NCBI GenBank assembly: GCA_902363395.1
Contig: CABIZZ010000002.1
Coordinates: 1 to 64,000 of the forward strand
Direction of reading: 5' to 3'
DNA length: 64,000 bases
Origin: Streptococcaceae bacterium
Lineage (GTDB): Bacteria > Bacillota > Bacilli > Lactobacillales > Streptococcaceae
How positions within the stretch are numbered: position 1 is the stretch's first letter; each line of letters begins with the position of its first letter. Shown piece by piece: positions 4,870 to 16,364 of the stretch. The position numbers and the translations under genes were made by a program. A model generated the notes under the pieces. That model was not told the origin of the DNA and did no database searches. It saw nothing but the letters and a program-made list of their open reading frames with translations.

Positions 4870-6855
4870 TTATTTAACGTGTTTTTCTAGTTCTTGCTGA
4901 GCTTTTTTATTTGAATCAGCTTTTTCTTTCAACCATTTTTCACGTGCTTGATCATATTGTTTTTTAGTGACAGGTTCATCTTGAACTTCAACATATTTGA
5001 AATAAGTTGATCCTTTGTTACCTGTTTGTGAGGAAGGTTCAGAGAATGGAACCACTTTTGAAACAACTGTAGCTGCACCAGAGCTTGTCATAGTTGGAAT
5101 CACTAATGCGCTATCTGTTAACCAAGCTTGCGCTGCTGCAAATTTGTCGTAACGTGTTACTACGTCTAGGGTTTCTTTTTCTGCATCATCAAGCAATTTC
5201 GCATATTCATCTAAGCCAACAGCCTTAGCAGAGGCATTATCGACACCACCAGCAAATCCAAGGTAAGTCTTAGTTTGGTCTGGTGAAGATGGTTGCAAGG
5301 TATCAAGGTAAGTAGATGGGTCATCGTAGTCTGGGTTCCATCCTACAAGCCCTTGAAGATCCCAGTCAGTTTCTGCAGCTGATGGTACGTTCAATGTAAT
5401 GTTCAAGACTTCATCTTGGTCCATCATTTGAAGGTCCACAACAACGTTTTCTGTACCAAGTGTTTCTTCAACTGATTGTTTGAAGGATTGCATCCGTGAC
5501 ACAAAGTTTGTTGAGTTTTGTGCAACCGGAACATCCAAGTGGATTGGGAATTGAACACCATCTTTTTGGAGTTCAGCTTTTGCTTTTTCAAACTGAGCTT
5601 TTGCTTTTTCCTTGCTATAGAGTCCGTTTTGACCGTCTGCAAGATTCACACCGCTCCATTGATCTCCATAAGTTTGCAACTTGTCTGCTACTACATCACC
5701 AAATTCTTTACCATTTACTTGAACAAAGGCAGGTGCGGTGTACATATTCCGAATAGCAGCCTTAGCATAGTCTTTACCATTGACTTGCGCTGAATAATTC
5801 TCACGGTTCAAGGCAAATGTGATCGCTTGACGGAAATTCTTGTTTAAGATCGCTTTCTTAGTAGAAGATTTCTGATCATCTGACGTCTTAGAAGTATGGT
5901 TGTAGGCTTGACGGTCAATGTTGAAACCTAAAACTGCTACACCAGAACCAGGCTGTGTGTTGTAGATATTATCTTTGTATTTTTCTTCAACAGATGCAAA
6001 GTTAGAGCTAGCAGGGTATAGACGCGCCTTGGTATATGAACCATCACTAAAACCGCGCGCCAAGGAATCTTGATCTGATCCATCATAATAAGACAATTTA
6101 ATCTTGTCGATATGAACGTTGTCTTTATCCCAGTAATCTTCGTTCTTTTCAAAAGTGATTTCTGATTTAGAAGTGATTGATTTCAAAAGGAATGGACCAT
6201 TGAACAAGATTGATTTGACATTACCTGGCTGACCAAATTCATCACCCTTGCTCTTCAAGAAATCTGTACTAATTGGGAAAAGAACACCATTAGTTGTTTT
6301 TGAATTCCAGAAAGTTTCTGGTTGGTTCAAAGTATACTCAAGTGTATAATCATCTACTGCTTTGACCCCAACCTCAGAGAAGTCTGAAATTTTTCCTTCT
6401 GAGTAGTCTTTCAATCCTTTGATTGAGTCTTTTACCAATGGAAGAGATTCTGATTTTTTATCTGCCGCATGCTTCAATCCAGTAACAAAGTCATGAGCTG
6501 TTACTTCACCATGCTCTTCACCGTCAGCATCATACCATTTAACACCCTTACGGATTTTATAAGTATAGGTCAAACCGTCTTTTGAAACAGACCAATCTTC
6601 AGCAATAGATGGTACAAGGTTTCCGTACTTGTCGTTCTCCAACAAACCATCTACACCGTTTGTTGTAATATCGTGTACGGAAGCTTTTGAAGATACAGTG
6701 TAATCCAAAGTTGTTGGATCATCTGTATAAACATAGCCATATGTTGTATCTTTTTTTGATGCAGACTTGCTATCTTTTGAGCCAGAACATGCTGCAAGGA
6801 AAGTTGCTGCGAGCAATGTTACTCCGGCAAATGCAAAAACTTTACTTTTTTTCAT
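4870..6855 (-). CDS. amiA: oligopeptide-binding lipoprotein AmiA
   Basis: Solute-binding protein of the oligopeptide permease, 661 residues, in the OppA/SBP_bac_5 family. A lipoprotein signal peptide ends in a lipobox (FLAAC, Cys23), so it should be anchored on the outer face of the membrane. The family pattern is clear (YVYTDDPTTLDYTVSS near the mature N terminus; a peptide-pocket region with NPDYDDPSTYLDT late). A ribosome site GGAG precedes the ATG by 7 bases. It lies directly upstream of amiC and has its own promoter and a CodY-like box. Confidence 0.95.
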   Translation of the reverse strand: MKKSKVFAFAGVTLLAATFLAACSGSKDSKSASKKDTTYGYVYTDDPTTLDYTVSSKASVHDITTNGVDGLLENDKYGNLVPSIAEDWSVSKDGLTYTYKIRKGVKWYDADGEEHGEVTAHDFVTGLKHAADKKSESLPLVKDSIKGLKDYSEGKISDFSEVGVKAVDDYTLEYTLNQPETFWNSKTTNGVLFPISTDFLKSKGDEFGQPGNVKSILFNGPFLLKSITSKSEITFEKNEDYWDKDNVHIDKIKLSYYDGSDQDSLARGFSDGSYTKARLYPASSNFASVEEKYKDNIYNTQPGSGVAVLGFNIDRQAYNHTSKTSDDQKSSTKKAILNKNFRQAITFALNRENYSAQVNGKDYAKAAIRNMYTAPAFVQVNGKEFGDVVADKLQTYGDQWSGVNLADGQNGLYSKEKAKAQFEKAKAELQKDGVQFPIHLDVPVAQNSTNFVSRMQSFKQSVEETLGTENVVVDLQMMDQDEVLNITLNVPSAAETDWDLQGLVGWNPDYDDPSTYLDTLQPSSPDQTKTYLGFAGGVDNASAKAVGLDEYAKLLDDAEKETLDVVTRYDKFAAAQAWLTDSALVIPTMTSSGAATVVSKVVPFSEPSSQTGNKGSTYFKYVEVQDEPVTKKQYDQAREKWLKEKADSNKKAQQELEKHVK

Positions 6856-7035: not shown

Positions 7036-9003
7036 CTATTTCGATTCGATGTGGTTCTTTAATTCTTCTTGGGCTTTTTTATTGGATTCAGCCTTTTCTT
7101 TCAACCATTTTTCTTTACTTGCATCGTAATCCTTTGTCTTGATGACTTCTTCTGAAAGTTCAAGATATTTATAGTTGGTTCCTGTACCTTTTGTTCCAAC
7201 CCATGAAGCAGCACGACTATATGGGACAGTCCGTTGCAACATTGGCGTTCCACCATTTGAAACAGTTGGCAAGATCAAAGAACTATCGGTTAGCCATGCT
7301 TGAGCGGCTGCGTATTTCTCATACCGTACAGCTTGGTCACTCACTTCTGCATTGGCATCTTTTAAGAGCTCTGCATACTTCCCAAAGTCAACTGCTGTAA
7401 TAGCAGGGCTGTTTGAACCTGCATCCACACCTAGATAGTAGAAAACAGAACCGTTAACAGGACTTAAACTCTCTAAATAAGTAGATGGATCTTGGTAGTC
7501 TGGAACCCATCCTCCGCCTGCAAGGTCATAATCTTTCTCAGCAGCAGTGTCTGTAAAGTAGGTAATATTGTTAAAGTCATCATCAGATAATTTCTGAATA
7601 TCTACGACAACATTGTCTGCACCAAGAACAGCTTCTACGGATTGTTTGAAGGAGCTAGCTTGTTGTACCTGGCTGTTATCTGTCTGACTGACAACGTAAT
7701 CCAAATGAATTGGGAATTGTACCCCTTCTTTTTGCAGTTGTTCTTTAGCTTTTGCAAATTCAGCCTTGGCTTTTTCTTGATTGTAGAGGGTGGTTTGGGC
7801 ATCATCTAGATTTACGTCTTTCCACTCATCCCCATAGGTCACCAATTGTTTCTCGACAACCTTACCGAACTCTTCGCCATTTACTTGAACAAAAGTCGGT
7901 GGAACCAAGGTGTTTCGAAGAATCTTGGTCGCTGCATCTGCGCCAGATGTTTGTGCAGCATAGGCTTCACGGTCAAAGGCAAAGTTGACAGCTTGACGGA
8001 AATCCTTATTTAAAATCGCTTGTTTTGTAGACGATTTTTGAGCATCTGTCGTTTTGGCTGTATGGTTATACTTCTGACGATCGATGTTGAAGCCTAGATA
8101 GTAAGATGTACCATATTGAACACCATAAACAATATTATCACCAAATTTCTTTTTCACACTCTTATAAGTGGAGCTATTTGGCATTACCGTCGCAAATGAA
8201 TATTGTCCATTCTCAAATTTCTTGATGACTGATTCTGGATCTGATCCATCATTGTAAGTCAACTTCACATTATCAATATGAACATTCTTTTCATCATAGT
8301 ATTCTTTATTTTTTACAAGTTCAATTTGAGATTTTGAAGTTAAATTCTTTAAATAATAGGGACCGTTATAGAGAATACTACTTGGTTTTAAAGAACCAAA
8401 GTCTTTTCCTTGAGATTCTAAGAACGCTGCGTTAACTGGGAAAAGGACGCCTGATGTCGTCTTAGAATTCCAAAAGCTTTCTGGGCGTTCCAAGGTATAT
8501 TGAACGGTGTAATCATCTAGAGCTTTCACGCCAACTGTCTTAAAATCTGTTGTTTCACCCTTGGCATAGGCATCCAAACCTTTAATGGAGTTTTGGATTA
8601 AGAAGAGACCTTCTGATTTTGATTCCACAGCATGTTTGATTCCTGTCACAAAATCGTGAGCTGTTACAGCACCGTATTCTTCCCCTTCACTGGTGTACCA
8701 TTTAGCATCTTTTCGAAGTTTATAGGTATAGACCAAGCCATCTTCTGAAACTGTCCAGTCTTCTGCCAAACTTGGGATTAAATTTCCATATTTATCATTT
8801 TCTAACAAACCATCAACAAGGTTACTTGTAATATCAGACGTCGTTGTACGAGTCGATGCAATGTAGTCCAAAGTATTTGGATCCGTTGAATAAATATAAG
8901 AATAAGTAGATTGATTGCTGCTTCCACCACCGCATGCTGTTAATAGAAGAGCGCTGGCTAGAGAAACACCGGCCAGTACAAACCGTTTATTTACTTTCAT
9001 CAC
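7036..9003 (-). CDS. oligopeptide-binding lipoprotein, AmiA/Hpp paralogue
   Basis: A second OppA-family binding protein of 655 residues, closely similar along its length to the adjacent AmiA (shared segments include DPSTYLES and AAAQAWLTDSSLI). A lipobox (LLLTAC, Cys24) gives a lipoprotein. It probably shares the AmiCDEF channel with a different peptide preference, as AliA/AliB and HppG/HppH do in related streptococci (inference). An AAGGAG site fits the first of two adjacent ATG codons. It has its own promoter and transcribes towards amiA. Confidence 0.93.
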   Translation of the reverse strand: MMKVNKRFVLAGVSLASALLLTACGGGSSNQSTYSYIYSTDPNTLDYIASTRTTTSDITSNLVDGLLENDKYGNLIPSLAEDWTVSEDGLVYTYKLRKDAKWYTSEGEEYGAVTAHDFVTGIKHAVESKSEGLFLIQNSIKGLDAYAKGETTDFKTVGVKALDDYTVQYTLERPESFWNSKTTSGVLFPVNAAFLESQGKDFGSLKPSSILYNGPYYLKNLTSKSQIELVKNKEYYDEKNVHIDNVKLTYNDGSDPESVIKKFENGQYSFATVMPNSSTYKSVKKKFGDNIVYGVQYGTSYYLGFNIDRQKYNHTAKTTDAQKSSTKQAILNKDFRQAVNFAFDREAYAAQTSGADAATKILRNTLVPPTFVQVNGEEFGKVVEKQLVTYGDEWKDVNLDDAQTTLYNQEKAKAEFAKAKEQLQKEGVQFPIHLDYVVSQTDNSQVQQASSFKQSVEAVLGADNVVVDIQKLSDDDFNNITYFTDTAAEKDYDLAGGGWVPDYQDPSTYLESLSPVNGSVFYYLGVDAGSNSPAITAVDFGKYAELLKDANAEVSDQAVRYEKYAAAQAWLTDSSLILPTVSNGGTPMLQRTVPYSRAASWVGTKGTGTNYKYLELSEEVIKTKDYDASKEKWLKEKAESNKKAQEELKNHIESK

Positions 9004-9175: not shown

Positions 9176-10423
9176 GTGAAAAAAATAATCACTTTACTTC
9201 TTTGTATAATTCTTACCCTTCTCAGTACTTCTCCTGTAAGAGCGGAGGACCTAGACCTTGGAGCCCAGCATGCTATTGCGATTGATGGGACAACAGGTAA
9301 AATACTCTACGAAAAAAATAGTGATGAGAAAAAAGAGGTTGGCGGAATCAGCAACCTTTTGACCACTTATCTCGTTTACGAAGCCATTCAGCAAGGAAAA
9401 ATCTCTTTAAATGATGACGTAGATATTTCGGACAAAGCCTACCAACTGACCGCTGTTGAAGGAATCAGCAATGTCCCCATGGAAGCTCGTAAATACAAGG
9501 TTAAGGACCTGCTCACTGCTCTCCTCGTATCAAACGCCAATAGCGCTGCCATTGCCTTAGCTGAAAAAGTAGCTGGTAACGAAGAACAATTCGTCCTGCT
9601 CATGAAAGCGAAGCTCAAAGATTGGGGGATTACAGATGCGACGATTGTGAATGCTAGTGGTTTGAACCAATCTATCATTGATGGGGATGAGGATGAGGAA
9701 AACAAAAAGAAAGATACAGAAAACAAGCTGAGTGCTTATGATGTAGCAGTCATCGCAAAACATCTTCTGGAAGACTATCCTGAAGTTACAAAAATCACCT
9801 CCCTTTCCCATGCAGAATTTGCTGGAATTCAATTGGAGAGCAGCAACTATATGTTGGAAAACATGCCCAACTATCGAGCAGGAGTGGATGGCCTAAAAAC
9901 CGGAAATTCCGATAAAGGGGGGATTTCATTTGTTGCTTCTACCAATCAAAATGGTATTCGCATGATCACTGTTGTCATTGGTGTTGAGGCAATCGATGGA
10001 GATCCCTACGCACGATTTGTTGCAACAGCCAACCTTATGAATTATGTGAGTCAAAACTTTATTGCAAGTCTGATTGTCAGCAAAGGCGAAGCCTACAACA
10101 ACAGTAAATCAACAGTCCTTGATGGTAAAAAAACAAGTGCCACCGCTGTCGCCAAGGATGACTTCATTGTGATTGAACGACAAGGAAGCCAAGCAGAAGC
10201 TAAAATCACCTTTAAAAGTAGCCAAGCTTCATTTAGCGCTCCTATAAAGAAAGGTACTTCTCTCGGAACCCTTACCTACACTGATCCAGAACCCATCGGT
10301 CGAGGGTATATCGAAGGTAAAGCCCCTAGTATGGAAATGGTGAGCGGAGAAAATATCCAAAAAAGTTTCTTCTTAAAAGTGTGGTGGAATCAATTTGTTC
10401 GTTACGTCAACGAAAAACTATAA
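9176..10423 (+). CDS. DacA/PBP3-like protein lacking the catalytic SxxK motif
   Basis: A 415-residue homologue of streptococcal PBP3 (D-alanyl-D-alanine carboxypeptidase), with signal peptide, peptidase S11 domain, C-terminal beta domain and the membrane-associating amphipathic helix FFLKVWWNQFVRYV. In functional PBP3 the nucleophile sits in SVTK before LLTxYLVYEA; here that stretch reads GISN (residues 57-60), so both Ser and Lys are gone. The second motif SxN (SSAN in PBP3) reads SNAN at 119-122, losing its Ser, while KTG is kept at 241-243. The frame is open, so this looks like a pseudoenzyme, not a broken gene. The start is GTG with a GAGGA site 8 bases upstream. It sits next to suf, as dacA does in pneumococcus. 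Confidence 0.85.
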   Translation: MKKIITLLLCIILTLLSTSPVRAEDLDLGAQHAIAIDGTTGKILYEKNSDEKKEVGGISNLLTTYLVYEAIQQGKISLNDDVDISDKAYQLTAVEGISNVPMEARKYKVKDLLTALLVSNANSAAIALAEKVAGNEEQFVLLMKAKLKDWGITDATIVNASGLNQSIIDGDEDEENKKKDTENKLSAYDVAVIAKHLLEDYPEVTKITSLSHAEFAGIQLESSNYMLENMPNYRAGVDGLKTGNSDKGGISFVASTNQNGIRMITVVIGVEAIDGDPYARFVATANLMNYVSQNFIASLIVSKGEAYNNSKSTVLDGKKTSATAVAKDDFIVIERQGSQAEAKITFKSSQASFSAPIKKGTSLGTLTYTDPEPIGRGYIEGKAPSMEMVSGENIQKSFFLKVWWNQFVRYVNEKL

Positions 10424-10488: not shown

Positions 10489-11061
10489 CTATCGAACTTC
10501 GAAATAAGGAAAAGCAGTGTCGCTGTCTATTGGATGAGTCGGGATTTCTTGTTCAATCACCGCACGCCAACCTGCTACCAATTCTTCAAAAGATAAGCTA
10601 GCTTCAGGTGTAGCTGTTGTTAGCTTCCGACCAAACCAAGCCATGGTCGCCGTTTCTAATTGAAGCATGGCATAACTAATCATAGGAACATTGGCAGCTT
10701 CGTAATTTTCATTGACTGCATGGGATACAGCTGGGGCTTGAGGCAAGAGTTGAAGGCGGATTTTTTCTACAAGTTCTGGATCCAATTCTTGCCAAGAAAT
10801 TAATTTCCCATCGATTTGATAATACAAATCAAATGTTTCTTGACCCGGCTTAAAATTCACTAGCATAAAGGCACGATCCGCTTTATCAGGACCGCCAACA
10901 GCCTTCACAGCATTGATCAAGAGATTTTGTTCCATCTGTCTCCAATAGTCATCTGCTTCTTCAGCTAAATCGTTTGTAAATGGCGGAATAATTTCTTCTG
11001 CAGGAATTTCGCCCTTATTCGCTTTTTCGACATTACCAAATAATTTTTTTAGGAATCCCAT
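10489..11061 (-). CDS. hypothetical protein downstream of sufB
   Basis: A 190-residue soluble protein that I do not recognise. It starts with a short basic amphipathic stretch (MGFLKKLFGNVEK), then an alpha/beta region with acidic patches and FDLYYQIDGKLISWQEL, loosely reminiscent of YezG/DUF600-like folds (weak). No signal peptide or membrane segment is visible. It follows sufB by 20 bp with a good AAAGGAG ribosome site, so it is probably the last gene of the suf transcript. Any role in Fe-S assembly is only suggested by position. Confidence 0.8.
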   Translation of the reverse strand: MGFLKKLFGNVEKANKGEIPAEEIIPPFTNDLAEEADDYWRQMEQNLLINAVKAVGGPDKADRAFMLVNFKPGQETFDLYYQIDGKLISWQELDPELVEKIRLQLLPQAPAVSHAVNENYEAANVPMISYAMLQLETATMAWFGRKLTTATPEASLSFEELVAGWRAVIEQEIPTHPIDSDTAFPYFEVR

Positions 11062-11081: not shown

Positions 11082-12494
11082 TTAACCGACAGATCCTTCC
11101 ATTTCGTAGCTAATCAATCGGTTCAGCTCAACTGCATATTCCATTGGAAGTTCTTTAGTGAAGGGCTCTACAAATCCCATGACGATCATTTCAGTCGCTT
11201 CTGATTCTGATAAACCACGGCTCATGAGGTAATAGAGTTGCTCTTCAGAAATCTTAGAAACCTTAGCTTCGTGCTCCAAAGCAACTTGCGAGTTATGAAT
11301 TTCATTAAATGGAATGGTATCTGATGCAGATAAGTCATCCATGATAATGGTATCACACTCAATGTGACTGACAGATTTCGCTGAATCTTTATTAAAGGTC
11401 ACTTGTCCACGGTAGTCAACCTTCCCTCCACCTTTCGCGATGGATTTTGAGACGATTGAAGAGCTGGTATGTGGAGCATTATGGATCATTTTAGCACCTG
11501 TATCTTGGTGTTGCCCCGCATTTGCAAAGGCGATAGAAAGCATAGTCCCACGCGCGCCTTCTCCATCCAGATAAACAGACGGGTATTTCATGGTCGTTTT
11601 AGCTCCGAGGTTTCCATCGATCCATTCAACTGTCGCATCTTTGGTTGCTTTGGCCCGTTTGGTTACCAAGTTATAGACATTGTCGGACCAATTTTGGATG
11701 GTCGTGTAACGCATATAAGCGCCATCCAAGGCAAAAATTTCGACAATGGCTGCGTGCAGGCTATTGCTTGAATAAGTCGGTGCTGTACATCCTTCTACAT
11801 AGTGGACGCTAGCGCCTTCGTCAACAATAATCAAAGTTCTCTCAAACTGACCTGTATTTTCATTGTTGATCCGGAAGTAGGTCTGCAAAGGAACATCGAC
11901 CTTAACACCCTTCGGCACATAGATAAAGGTTCCACCTGACCAAACAGCTGAGTTGAGGGCTGCCAACTTATTATCCGTTGGAGGTACCAACTTAGCAAAG
12001 TATTGCTTAAACAAGTCTGGATATTCCTTCAAAGCCGAATCTGTATCGGTAAAAATGATTCCGAGCTTTTGGAATTCTTCCTTCATGTTATGGTAAACTA
12101 CTTCAGACTCATACTGAGCAGCTGCTCCGGCCAGGTAAGCACGCTCTGCTTCTGGAATACCAATCCGTTCAAATGTTTCCTTAATTTTTTCAGGCACTTC
12201 ATCCCAGCTACGTGCAGGTTTATCAGATGGTTTTTGATAATAAATCAAATCATCAAAATCAATATCTGACAAGTCTGCTCCCCAAGTTTGCATCGGCATT
12301 TTTTTAAATGCTTCATAAGACTTCAAACGGAACTCCAGCATCCATTCCGGCTCATTTTTCGCAGCAGACAACTCGCGAATAACCGATTCATTCAACCCTT
12401 TTCCTGTTGACAAGATTGGGTCTACATCATCGTGAAAGCCAAATTTATATTCACCAAGATCAATTGGTTTTGGTTCTACTCTTTCTTCTGTCAT
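11082..12494 (-). CDS. sufB: Fe-S cluster assembly scaffold SufB
   Basis: SufB of the SUF scaffold SufBCD, 470 residues, the usual length. The family core is evident ([27 protein letters not shown], and the C-terminal [25 protein letters not shown]). Fe-S clusters are built on SufBCD from sulfur delivered by SufS-SufU. It is the fifth suf gene here, following sufU after a 145-bp gap that carries a small open frame, and has a GAAAGGA ribosome site. Confidence 0.97.
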
Positions 12495-12544
12495 ATCTTT
12501 CCTTTCATTTTCTTTTTAGCGCTCTTTACATGTGATTACTTTTT

Positions 12545-12639
12545 CTAATCTGGATCATCAGCAGCCGAATGTTGATAGCACTTCTCACCAGAAGCTCGGT
12601 TAAAAAACAGACTTGAATCTTCATCACTTTTATTTATCA

Positions 12640-12640
<1 letters not shown>
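12545..12640 (-). CDS. possible 31-residue ORF between sufU and sufB
   Basis: A 31-codon frame begins at an ATG that overlaps the sufU stop (TAATG) and ends at TAG before sufB. The product starts MINKSDEDSS and contains CYQH; no family is recognised. No separate ribosome site is evident, so translation would depend on coupling to sufU. It may be chance. Confidence 0.3.
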
Positions 12641-15552
<2,912 letters not shown>

Positions 15553-15593
15553 TTACTCCTCCTCAAAGATCCTGTTCAGTTTTGGACACAAGA

Positions 15594-16364
15594 TTAGAGT
15601 TCTTCTTTGTAGTCGTAACCTAACTCTTCTGCTAATTTCGCGTATCCTTCACGCTCCAAACGCACAGCAAGTTCAGGACCACCTGAAAGGACGACACGAC
15701 CTTCCATCATCACGTGAACCACATCAGGAGTAATGTAGTTTAAAAGACGTTGGTAGTGGGTAATAATCATGGCACCAAAACCTTCGCCACGCATTTCATT
15801 GACCCCTTTTGAAACTACTTTAAGGGCATCAATATCCAAACCGGAGTCAATCTCATCAAGAAGGGCAAACTTCGGTTCCAACATCAACAATTGTAGAATC
15901 TCATTGCGTTTCTTCTCACCACCTGAGAAACCTTCGTTCAAATAGCGTTCTGCCATTTCTTCCTTCATATTGAGGAGTTCCATTTTCTGGTCCAATTTTG
16001 TGATAAAATCACGAACAGAAATTTTTTCATCCTCTTCTTTGCCTGCATTCATGGCTGCACGAAGGAATTCAGCATTGGTAATTCCTGGAATTTCTGATGG
16101 GTATTGCATAGCCAAGAAAAGGCCCATGCGAGCACGTTCATCCACTTCCAATTCAAGGATATTCACTCCATCAAATAGAATTTCACCCTTGGTCACTTCA
16201 TAGTTTGGATTCCCCATGATCGCTGCAGATAGGGTTGATTTCCCTGTCCCGTTAGGTCCCATGATGGCTGCAATTTCCCCTGTTTTAAGGGTCAAGTTCA
16301 CGCCTTTTAAAATTTCCTTGCCTTCAATTTCTACATGAAGATCTTTAATCTCTAATACTGACAT
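15594..16364 (-). CDS. sufC: Fe-S assembly ATPase SufC
   Basis: An ABC-type soluble ATPase of the SUF complex, 256 residues. Walker A is GPNGTGKST (36-44), the signature FSGGEKKRNE is the SufC variant, and Walker B is FALLDEIDSGLD. It is the first gene of the suf operon. A TATACT -10 (16401-16406) lies about 40 bp upstream, immediately after the tagO terminator. Confidence 0.97.
   Translation of the reverse strand: MSVLEIKDLHVEIEGKEILKGVNLTLKTGEIAAIMGPNGTGKSTLSAAIMGNPNYEVTKGEILFDGVNILELEVDERARMGLFLAMQYPSEIPGITNAEFLRAAMNAGKEEDEKISVRDFITKLDQKMELLNMKEEMAERYLNEGFSGGEKKRNEILQLLMLEPKFALLDEIDSGLDIDALKVVSKGVNEMRGEGFGAMIITHYQRLLNYITPDVVHVMMEGRVVLSGGPELAVRLEREGYAKLAEELGYDYKEEL

What the first reader, a model, noticed from the sequence alone, without database searches (positions are those of the whole stretch)
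9176..10423. DacA/PBP3 homologue without the catalytic serine and lysine
At the SxxK position, fixed by the following LLTTYLVYEA that matches pneumococcal PBP3, the gene encodes GISN, so both nucleophile Ser and general-base Lys are missing. The SxN serine is also replaced (SNAN). KTG, the signal peptide and the C-terminal amphipathic helix are retained and the 415-codon frame is open. It sits beside suf, where dacA normally is. A pseudoenzyme that binds peptidoglycan or regulates septal synthesis, or a diverged copy alongside an active dacA elsewhere, are both possible.
Basis: partly seen in the sequence, partly recalled or inferred. Interest (0 to 1): 0.72.

Follow-up and report, generated by a model that had tools for sequence, protein, structure and literature searches.

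The report
Inactive PBP3 (DacA) in oral streptococci
A cell-wall trimming enzyme of oral streptococci has lost the residues it needs for catalysis, yet the gene is mostly kept under strong selection while a second, intact-looking enzyme is present in close relatives; the pattern was already in print, but why the dead protein is kept is unknown.

Summary

This is not a species oddity. Of 275 Streptococcus genomes with a DacA ORF of at least 330 aa, 95 of 120 that also carry a PBP4-like carboxypeptidase have a DacA with a lost motif, against 1 of 155 that lack it. The second enzyme kept its motifs in all 57 genomes inspected of 127. After allowing for shared ancestry the association is weak or not significant.

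The core phenomenon is published: Denapaite et al. 2016 (PMC4863584) report inactive 'group 1' PBP3 at the suf locus beside an intact 'group 2' carboxypeptidase. Added here: genus-wide scale, repeated loss, selection, fold. Most likely it is a retained pseudoenzyme whose catalysis passed to group 2; its retained role is inferred.

The parts
9176..10423 (+). suf-locus dacA (PBP3, 'group 1' carboxypeptidase) without catalytic Ser and Lys, 415 aa, GTG start
   Evidence: PF00768 222 bits, PF07943 39.9 bits; 1XP4; NCBIfam strep_PBP3 533.5 bits, cut-off 490
9176..9244 (+). N-terminal signal-peptide-like stretch, residues 1-23 (boundary approximate, read by eye)
   Evidence: hydrophobic stretch seen directly; helix 2-15 in the model
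9344..9355 (+). SxxK position: GISN, residues 57-60 (catalytic Ser and Lys absent)
   Evidence: alignment to 1XP4 and to 284 Streptococcus DacA ORFs
9533..9541 (+). SxN position: NAN, residues 120-122 (Ser absent, Asn kept)
9896..9904 (+). KTG, residues 241-243, kept; next residue is Asn (Thr in 61 of 65 intact representatives)
10364..10420 (+). C-terminal amphipathic helix, residues 397-415 (membrane-anchor region by analogy, recalled)
   Evidence: model helix 399-414; region rate 0.49 of the gene mean in the inactive set
10489..11061 (-). flanking ORF of 190 aa between dacA and suf; no NCBIfam match
11082..16364 (-). suf genes (five ORFs; names recognised by eye, not tested by a family search here)
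7036..9003 (-). OppA-like substrate-binding lipoprotein on the other flank
   Evidence: OppA models, below cut-off

Best explanation
The gene is the orthologous suf-locus dacA, turned into a non-catalytic pseudoenzyme. In this lineage D,D-carboxypeptidase activity is most likely supplied by an intact PBP4-like group 2 enzyme encoded elsewhere, which relaxed the need for DacA's own catalysis. Lysine was probably lost first (lost in 10 of 10 branch representatives, Asn in 7 of them, while 4 of 10 still have the Ser), then the serine and, in some lineages, the other motifs. The folded, exported, membrane-anchored protein was kept because it does something other than cleave D-Ala, most plausibly occupying its usual place at the membrane and wall and contacting peptidoglycan or division proteins. 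Shown: loss of residues, selection on the gene, retained predicted fold, the motif-intact paralogue in relatives. Inferred: order of events, transfer of activity, and the retained role.
For: Residues absent in 9 of 9 group members, window included. Purifying selection: median pairwise dN/dS 0.066 in the window clade (26 pairs), 0.077, 0.070 and 0.068 in three other inactive groups, 0.099 in a fourth (6 pairs), against 0.036-0.094 in four intact groups. Seven neighbouring genes 0.009-0.150, dacA 0.073 in the same set. AlphaFold model pLDDT 87.9 matches 1XP4 over 367 residues at rmsd 2.0. 95 of 120 genomes with the paralogue have a DacA with a lost motif (93 if G106 and G295, counted through truncated ORFs, are set aside) against 1 of 155 without it. 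Paralogue motifs intact in 57 of 57 genomes inspected, out of 127 that have it (in one, G016, KTG lay beyond the fetched end). Published report of the same pairing: PMC4863584.
Against: No activity, expression or phenotype was measured. The association is weak once ancestry is considered: independent pairs gave a median p of 0.5; a branch-length test gave p 0.034 for any motif and 0.40 for SxxK alone. 25 of 120 genomes with the paralogue keep only intact DacA. One genome without the paralogue (G247) has an inactive DacA and no other PF00768 match. Five genomes with the paralogue have no suf-type DacA at all (G005, G069, G134, G268, G306) and several have truncated or broken copies (G235, G242, G230, G106, G099, one copy in G295, and G065 in the window's own group), so the retained role is not essential everywhere. 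dacA has the highest median dN of the eight genes compared. The KTG stretch and residues 73-115 evolve faster in the inactive set, so an intact substrate pocket is not being preserved.
Confidence: 0.7

Rival explanations
1. The gene is a slowly decaying relic: catalysis became redundant and the protein has no remaining function, persisting only because too little time has passed.
For: Truncated, broken or absent suf-type copies occur in some genomes that have the paralogue, one of them (G065) in the window's own group. The KTG region is relaxed in the inactive set (rate 1.06 of the gene mean against 0.17-0.20 in two intact sets). dacA has the highest median dN (0.033) of the eight genes compared in the window group.
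Against: dN/dS about 0.07 within four inactive groups; of 122 paralogue-bearing genomes with a suf-type gene, 116 have an ORF of at least 395 aa; a whole supported branch is inactive (10 of 10 representatives, support 97); well-predicted fold; 35 alignment positions, one of them a gap column, are at least 95% conserved in both intact and inactive sets.
Confidence: 0.15
2. The protein still binds D-Ala-D-Ala stem peptides without cutting them and so shields pentapeptides or competes with the group 2 enzyme (a substrate-binding regulator).
For: Overall fold kept. In the Sanguinis branch, N224 and G239 are kept in 10 of 10 and R280 in 9 of 10 representatives. KTG is kept in the window group.
Against: Across all inactive representatives R280 is kept in only 32 of 52 and K241 in 22 of 52 (K241 partly circular, as KTG loss defines the set); S. 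parasanguinis-type copies have RVS in place of KTG; residues 73-115 and the KTG stretch are relaxed.
Confidence: 0.1
3. The active site has been rebuilt and another residue serves as nucleophile, so the protein is still an enzyme.
For: A serine lies inside GISN, two residues after the usual serine position (seen in the sequence).
Against: The alignment around the motif has no gaps. Relatives in the same branch have Thr or Ser at that position without a consistent alternative pattern (SITN, AITN, GLST), and the lysine is lost in all 10 branch representatives.
Confidence: 0.04

Closest known systems
Inactive group 1 CPases (PBP3 homologues) of viridans streptococci, Denapaite et al. 2016, PMC4863584
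   Same: Same gene and place (between a suf gene and an ABC transporter gene), mutated Ser and/or Lys of SXXK, and a group 2 CPase with SMSK/SSN/KTG in the genome; [quoted passage not shown] sections 10 and 18 read)
   Different: The species named there for the extra homologues are S. constellatus, S. parasanguinis, S. gordonii, S. sinensis and S. cristatus, plus strains of unknown species; the window group (S. xiaochunlingii/australis/rubneri) is not named in those sections. Selection, fold and number of losses are not reported in them.
S. pneumoniae PBP3 / DacA (1XP4)
   Same: 51% identity over the aligned structure, same fold; same gene neighbourhood (recalled)
   Different: 1XP4 has SITK, SAN, KTG; the window protein has GISN, NAN, KTG
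Group 2 CPase, S. aureus PBP4-like (L002 type)
   Same: PF00768 family
   Different: 28% identical to the window protein; best NCBIfam model is PBP4_Staph (311 bits, below its cut-off of 500); all three motifs intact
S. aureus PBP4
   Different: Active enzyme (recalled); about 25% identity to the window protein

Membership tests
Streptococcal PBP3 as a sequence family (NCBIfam NF038273, PF00768) | Profile score over the curated cut-off | tested here: met
   NF038273 533.5 against 490 bits; PF00768 222 against 27.6
Active serine D-Ala-D-Ala carboxypeptidase / penicillin-binding protein | SxxK with nucleophilic Ser and general-base Lys | tested here: not met
   GISN
Active serine D-Ala-D-Ala carboxypeptidase / penicillin-binding protein | SxN motif | tested here: not met
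   NAN: Ser absent, Asn kept
Active serine D-Ala-D-Ala carboxypeptidase / penicillin-binding protein | KTG motif | tested here: met
   KTG kept, followed by Asn
Active serine D-Ala-D-Ala carboxypeptidase / penicillin-binding protein | Release of D-Ala, acylation by penicillin | not testable with these tools
   needs protein
Inactive group 1 CPase of streptococci (Denapaite 2016) | Gene between suf and an ABC transporter gene | tested here: met
   OppA-like gene at 7036-9003, suf genes from 11082 (recognised by eye), with a 190-aa ORF between dacA and suf
Inactive group 1 CPase of streptococci (Denapaite 2016) | Ser and/or Lys of SXXK changed | tested here: met
Inactive group 1 CPase of streptococci (Denapaite 2016) | Intact group 2 CPase in the same genome | tested here: inconclusive
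   Window's own assembly not held. Present in 8 of 8 close relatives and motif-intact in each (L111-L118)

The most novel reading that the evidence does not exclude
Streptococcal PBP3 has a second, non-catalytic job that natural selection guards on its own. In many lineages (about 12 separate losses of a catalytic motif on the DacA tree, 7 of SxxK) catalysis was handed to a PBP4-like enzyme and the PBP3 scaffold was kept as a pseudoenzyme at the membrane-wall interface, which would make these species natural separation-of-function mutants for class C penicillin-binding proteins.
Probability: 0.4. Interest if true: 0.65.

Novelty: new member of a known kind. Interest (0 to 1): 0.38.

Why it matters
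The NCBI profile for streptococcal PBP3 passes this protein as D-alanyl-D-alanine carboxypeptidase PBP3 although it lacks the nucleophile, so automatic annotation and penicillin-target lists for these oral species would probably be wrong. If the protein does have a non-catalytic role, these species separate the structural from the catalytic role of a low-molecular-mass PBP without any engineering, and make the question testable by simple gene removal.

Tried and rejected
Sequencing error or wrong frame: rejected, 8 of 8 other genomes of the group agree.

Tandem or relocated duplicate of dacA as the explanation for the window gene: rejected for this group, since each of the 8 relatives has one suf-type DacA and otherwise only hits of 28-31% identity. 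Tandem second DacA copies occur elsewhere in the genus, for example in G300, G034 and G301.

Strong statistical proof that paralogue presence permits loss: not obtained. Raw Fisher p 7e-49 ignores ancestry; independent pairs n.s.; branch-length binomial p 0.016 as first run, 0.034 after setting aside two truncated ORFs, for any motif; 0.26 and 0.40 for SxxK. The tree is a quick one with 31 of 118 inner branches open, so loss counts are approximate.

Preserved substrate pocket: not supported. The list of positions lost in inactive copies is partly circular, because inactive was defined by the motif residues.

Promoter scan: 5 promoter-like sites against 3.1 expected, 2 terminator-like against 1.4, so uninformative. 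The fold list includes an integrative model of a YxkC-DacA complex (9a4z); a paper search for it found nothing, so a partner protein remains a lead only.

Papers: searches; some searches listed only the best 20 of 240, 10 of 330 and 12 of 59. PMC4863584 is the only one in which I saw the phenomenon (passages, then sections 10 and 18; not the whole text). PMC2605481, PMC12837354 and PMC4087270 were seen as passages; the rest as listings. The library lacks most subscription journals.

Row choices: group 2 presence was set from the best E-value, typed by hand from its table (5.2e-75 or better counted present, 9.7e-40 or weaker absent; nothing between). DacA was not fetched for G129; five genomes have no suf-type DacA; G171, G235 and G242 have no ORF of 330 aa; so 275 of 284 genomes were counted. 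HTG was counted as intact for the third motif, MTG and ITG as lost.

Full report
What is there. The ORF at 9176-10423 is a complete DacA/PBP3 homologue of 415 residues starting at GTG. It matches PF00768 and PF07943, and its best solved relative is S. pneumoniae PBP3, 1XP4. In place of the pneumococcal SITK, SAN and KTG it has GISN, NAN and KTG.

Where it comes from. The window is 98.4% identical over 13.2 kb to S. xiaochunlingii E24 (L033) and 93.0-97.4% to loci of S. australis strains and S. sp. bf_0095 (L034-L037). Its own assembly is not held. The same three motif states occur in 8 of 8 other genomes of this group, seven of them full length; the copy of G065 stops early, at the place of window residue 387, and so lacks the C-terminal helix. 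Each of the eight has one suf-type DacA and at least two further, distant PF00768-type hits of 28-31% identity.

Genus-wide survey. DacA was sought in 284 Streptococcus genomes (coordinates also), stretches were in hand for 278 (counted), and an ORF of at least 330 aa was found in 275. A second family, here called group 2 after PMC4863584, was scored in all 284 with the L002 protein: 127 have it and 157 do not (counted). Of 155 genomes without it and with such a DacA ORF, 154 have all three motifs intact; the exception, G247, has GLTK/SSD/AVS. Of 120 genomes with it, 25 have only intact DacA and 95 have at least one copy with a lost motif (90 with a single such copy, 5 mixed). Two of the 95, G106 and G295, count only through truncated ORFs, leaving 93. 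SxxK has lost Ser or Lys in 63 of the 120, SxN is lost in 53 and KTG in 69. Where the lysine is lost, it is Asn in 40 of 62 proteins.

The paralogue. In the window's relatives it lies beside a gene recognised by eye as nagB. It is 28% identical to the window protein, has SMSK/SSN/KTG, and scores best against the S. aureus PBP4 model, below that model's cut-off. Its motifs were intact in all 57 genomes inspected of the 127 that have it, three of them with STTK in place of SMSK (KTG was out of view in one). Stops inside were listed for the best group 2 match of a few other genomes (for example G106 and G205), which were not looked into. Close relatives carry a further PF00768 gene with SMAK/SSS/KTG (L003, L367).

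Tree. On a tree of 121 representatives built without the motif columns, the window's branch (Sanguinis, parasanguinis and australis types) is a supported set of 10, all inactive at SxxK (support 97). Fewest-changes counts are 9 for SxxK and 11 for any motif. Treating loss as irreversible gives 9 and 14 sets; two in each are truncated ORFs, leaving 7 and 12. The link to the paralogue goes the expected way but is not significant by independent pairs, and reaches p 0.034 (any motif) or 0.40 (SxxK) by branch length.

What is already known. Denapaite et al. 2016 (PMC4863584; sections 10 and 18 read) reported two groups of carboxypeptidases in several viridans streptococci: group 1 at the suf locus with mutated Ser and/or Lys of SXXK in almost all strains that have group 2, and group 2 with SMSK/SSN/KTG, in one strain with a second, SMAK protein. 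They took group 2 to be the likely only functional carboxypeptidase. The finding is therefore a further member of a published kind. Selection, fold, genus-wide counts and number of losses are additions of this work as far as those sections and the searches show.

Results against. Some genomes with the paralogue have lost the suf-type gene (five) or have truncated or broken copies (G235, G242, G230, G106, G099, G065, and one copy in G295); 25 of 120 keep only intact DacA; and G247 has neither an intact DacA nor another PF00768 match. The retained role, if any, is dispensable in some lineages. No expression or activity data were available.

Noticed in passing
G247 (L368:6770-8017, - strand): A Streptococcus genome (96% complete) whose only PF00768 match is a DacA with GLTK/SSD/AVS: apparently no intact S11 D,D-carboxypeptidase.
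   Followed up: partly
window 9176-10423: The NCBIfam model NF038273 passes this inactive protein over its cut-off, so automatic annotation would name it a carboxypeptidase.
   Followed up: yes
window 4870-6855 and 7036-9003: Two neighbouring OppA-like lipoprotein genes next to dacA; each matches the other copy in relatives at about 66% DNA identity.
   Followed up: no
window 10489-11061: A 190-aa ORF between dacA and suf with no NCBIfam match and the highest dN/dS (0.15) of the eight genes compared.
   Followed up: no
L003:1117-2406 and L367:9613-10902: A further PF00768 gene close to the group 2 gene, with SMAK/SSS/KTG: it may be a second protein losing its SxN motif.
   Followed up: partly
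L087:1585-2739 (G065): A copy in the window's own group that ends early and lacks the C-terminal helix.
   Followed up: partly
G070, G089, G127, G204, G212 and related genomes: A separate branch mostly keeps SxxK but has lost the SxN serine and KTG (NAN with FVG, FIG or FVA), a different route of decay.
   Followed up: partly
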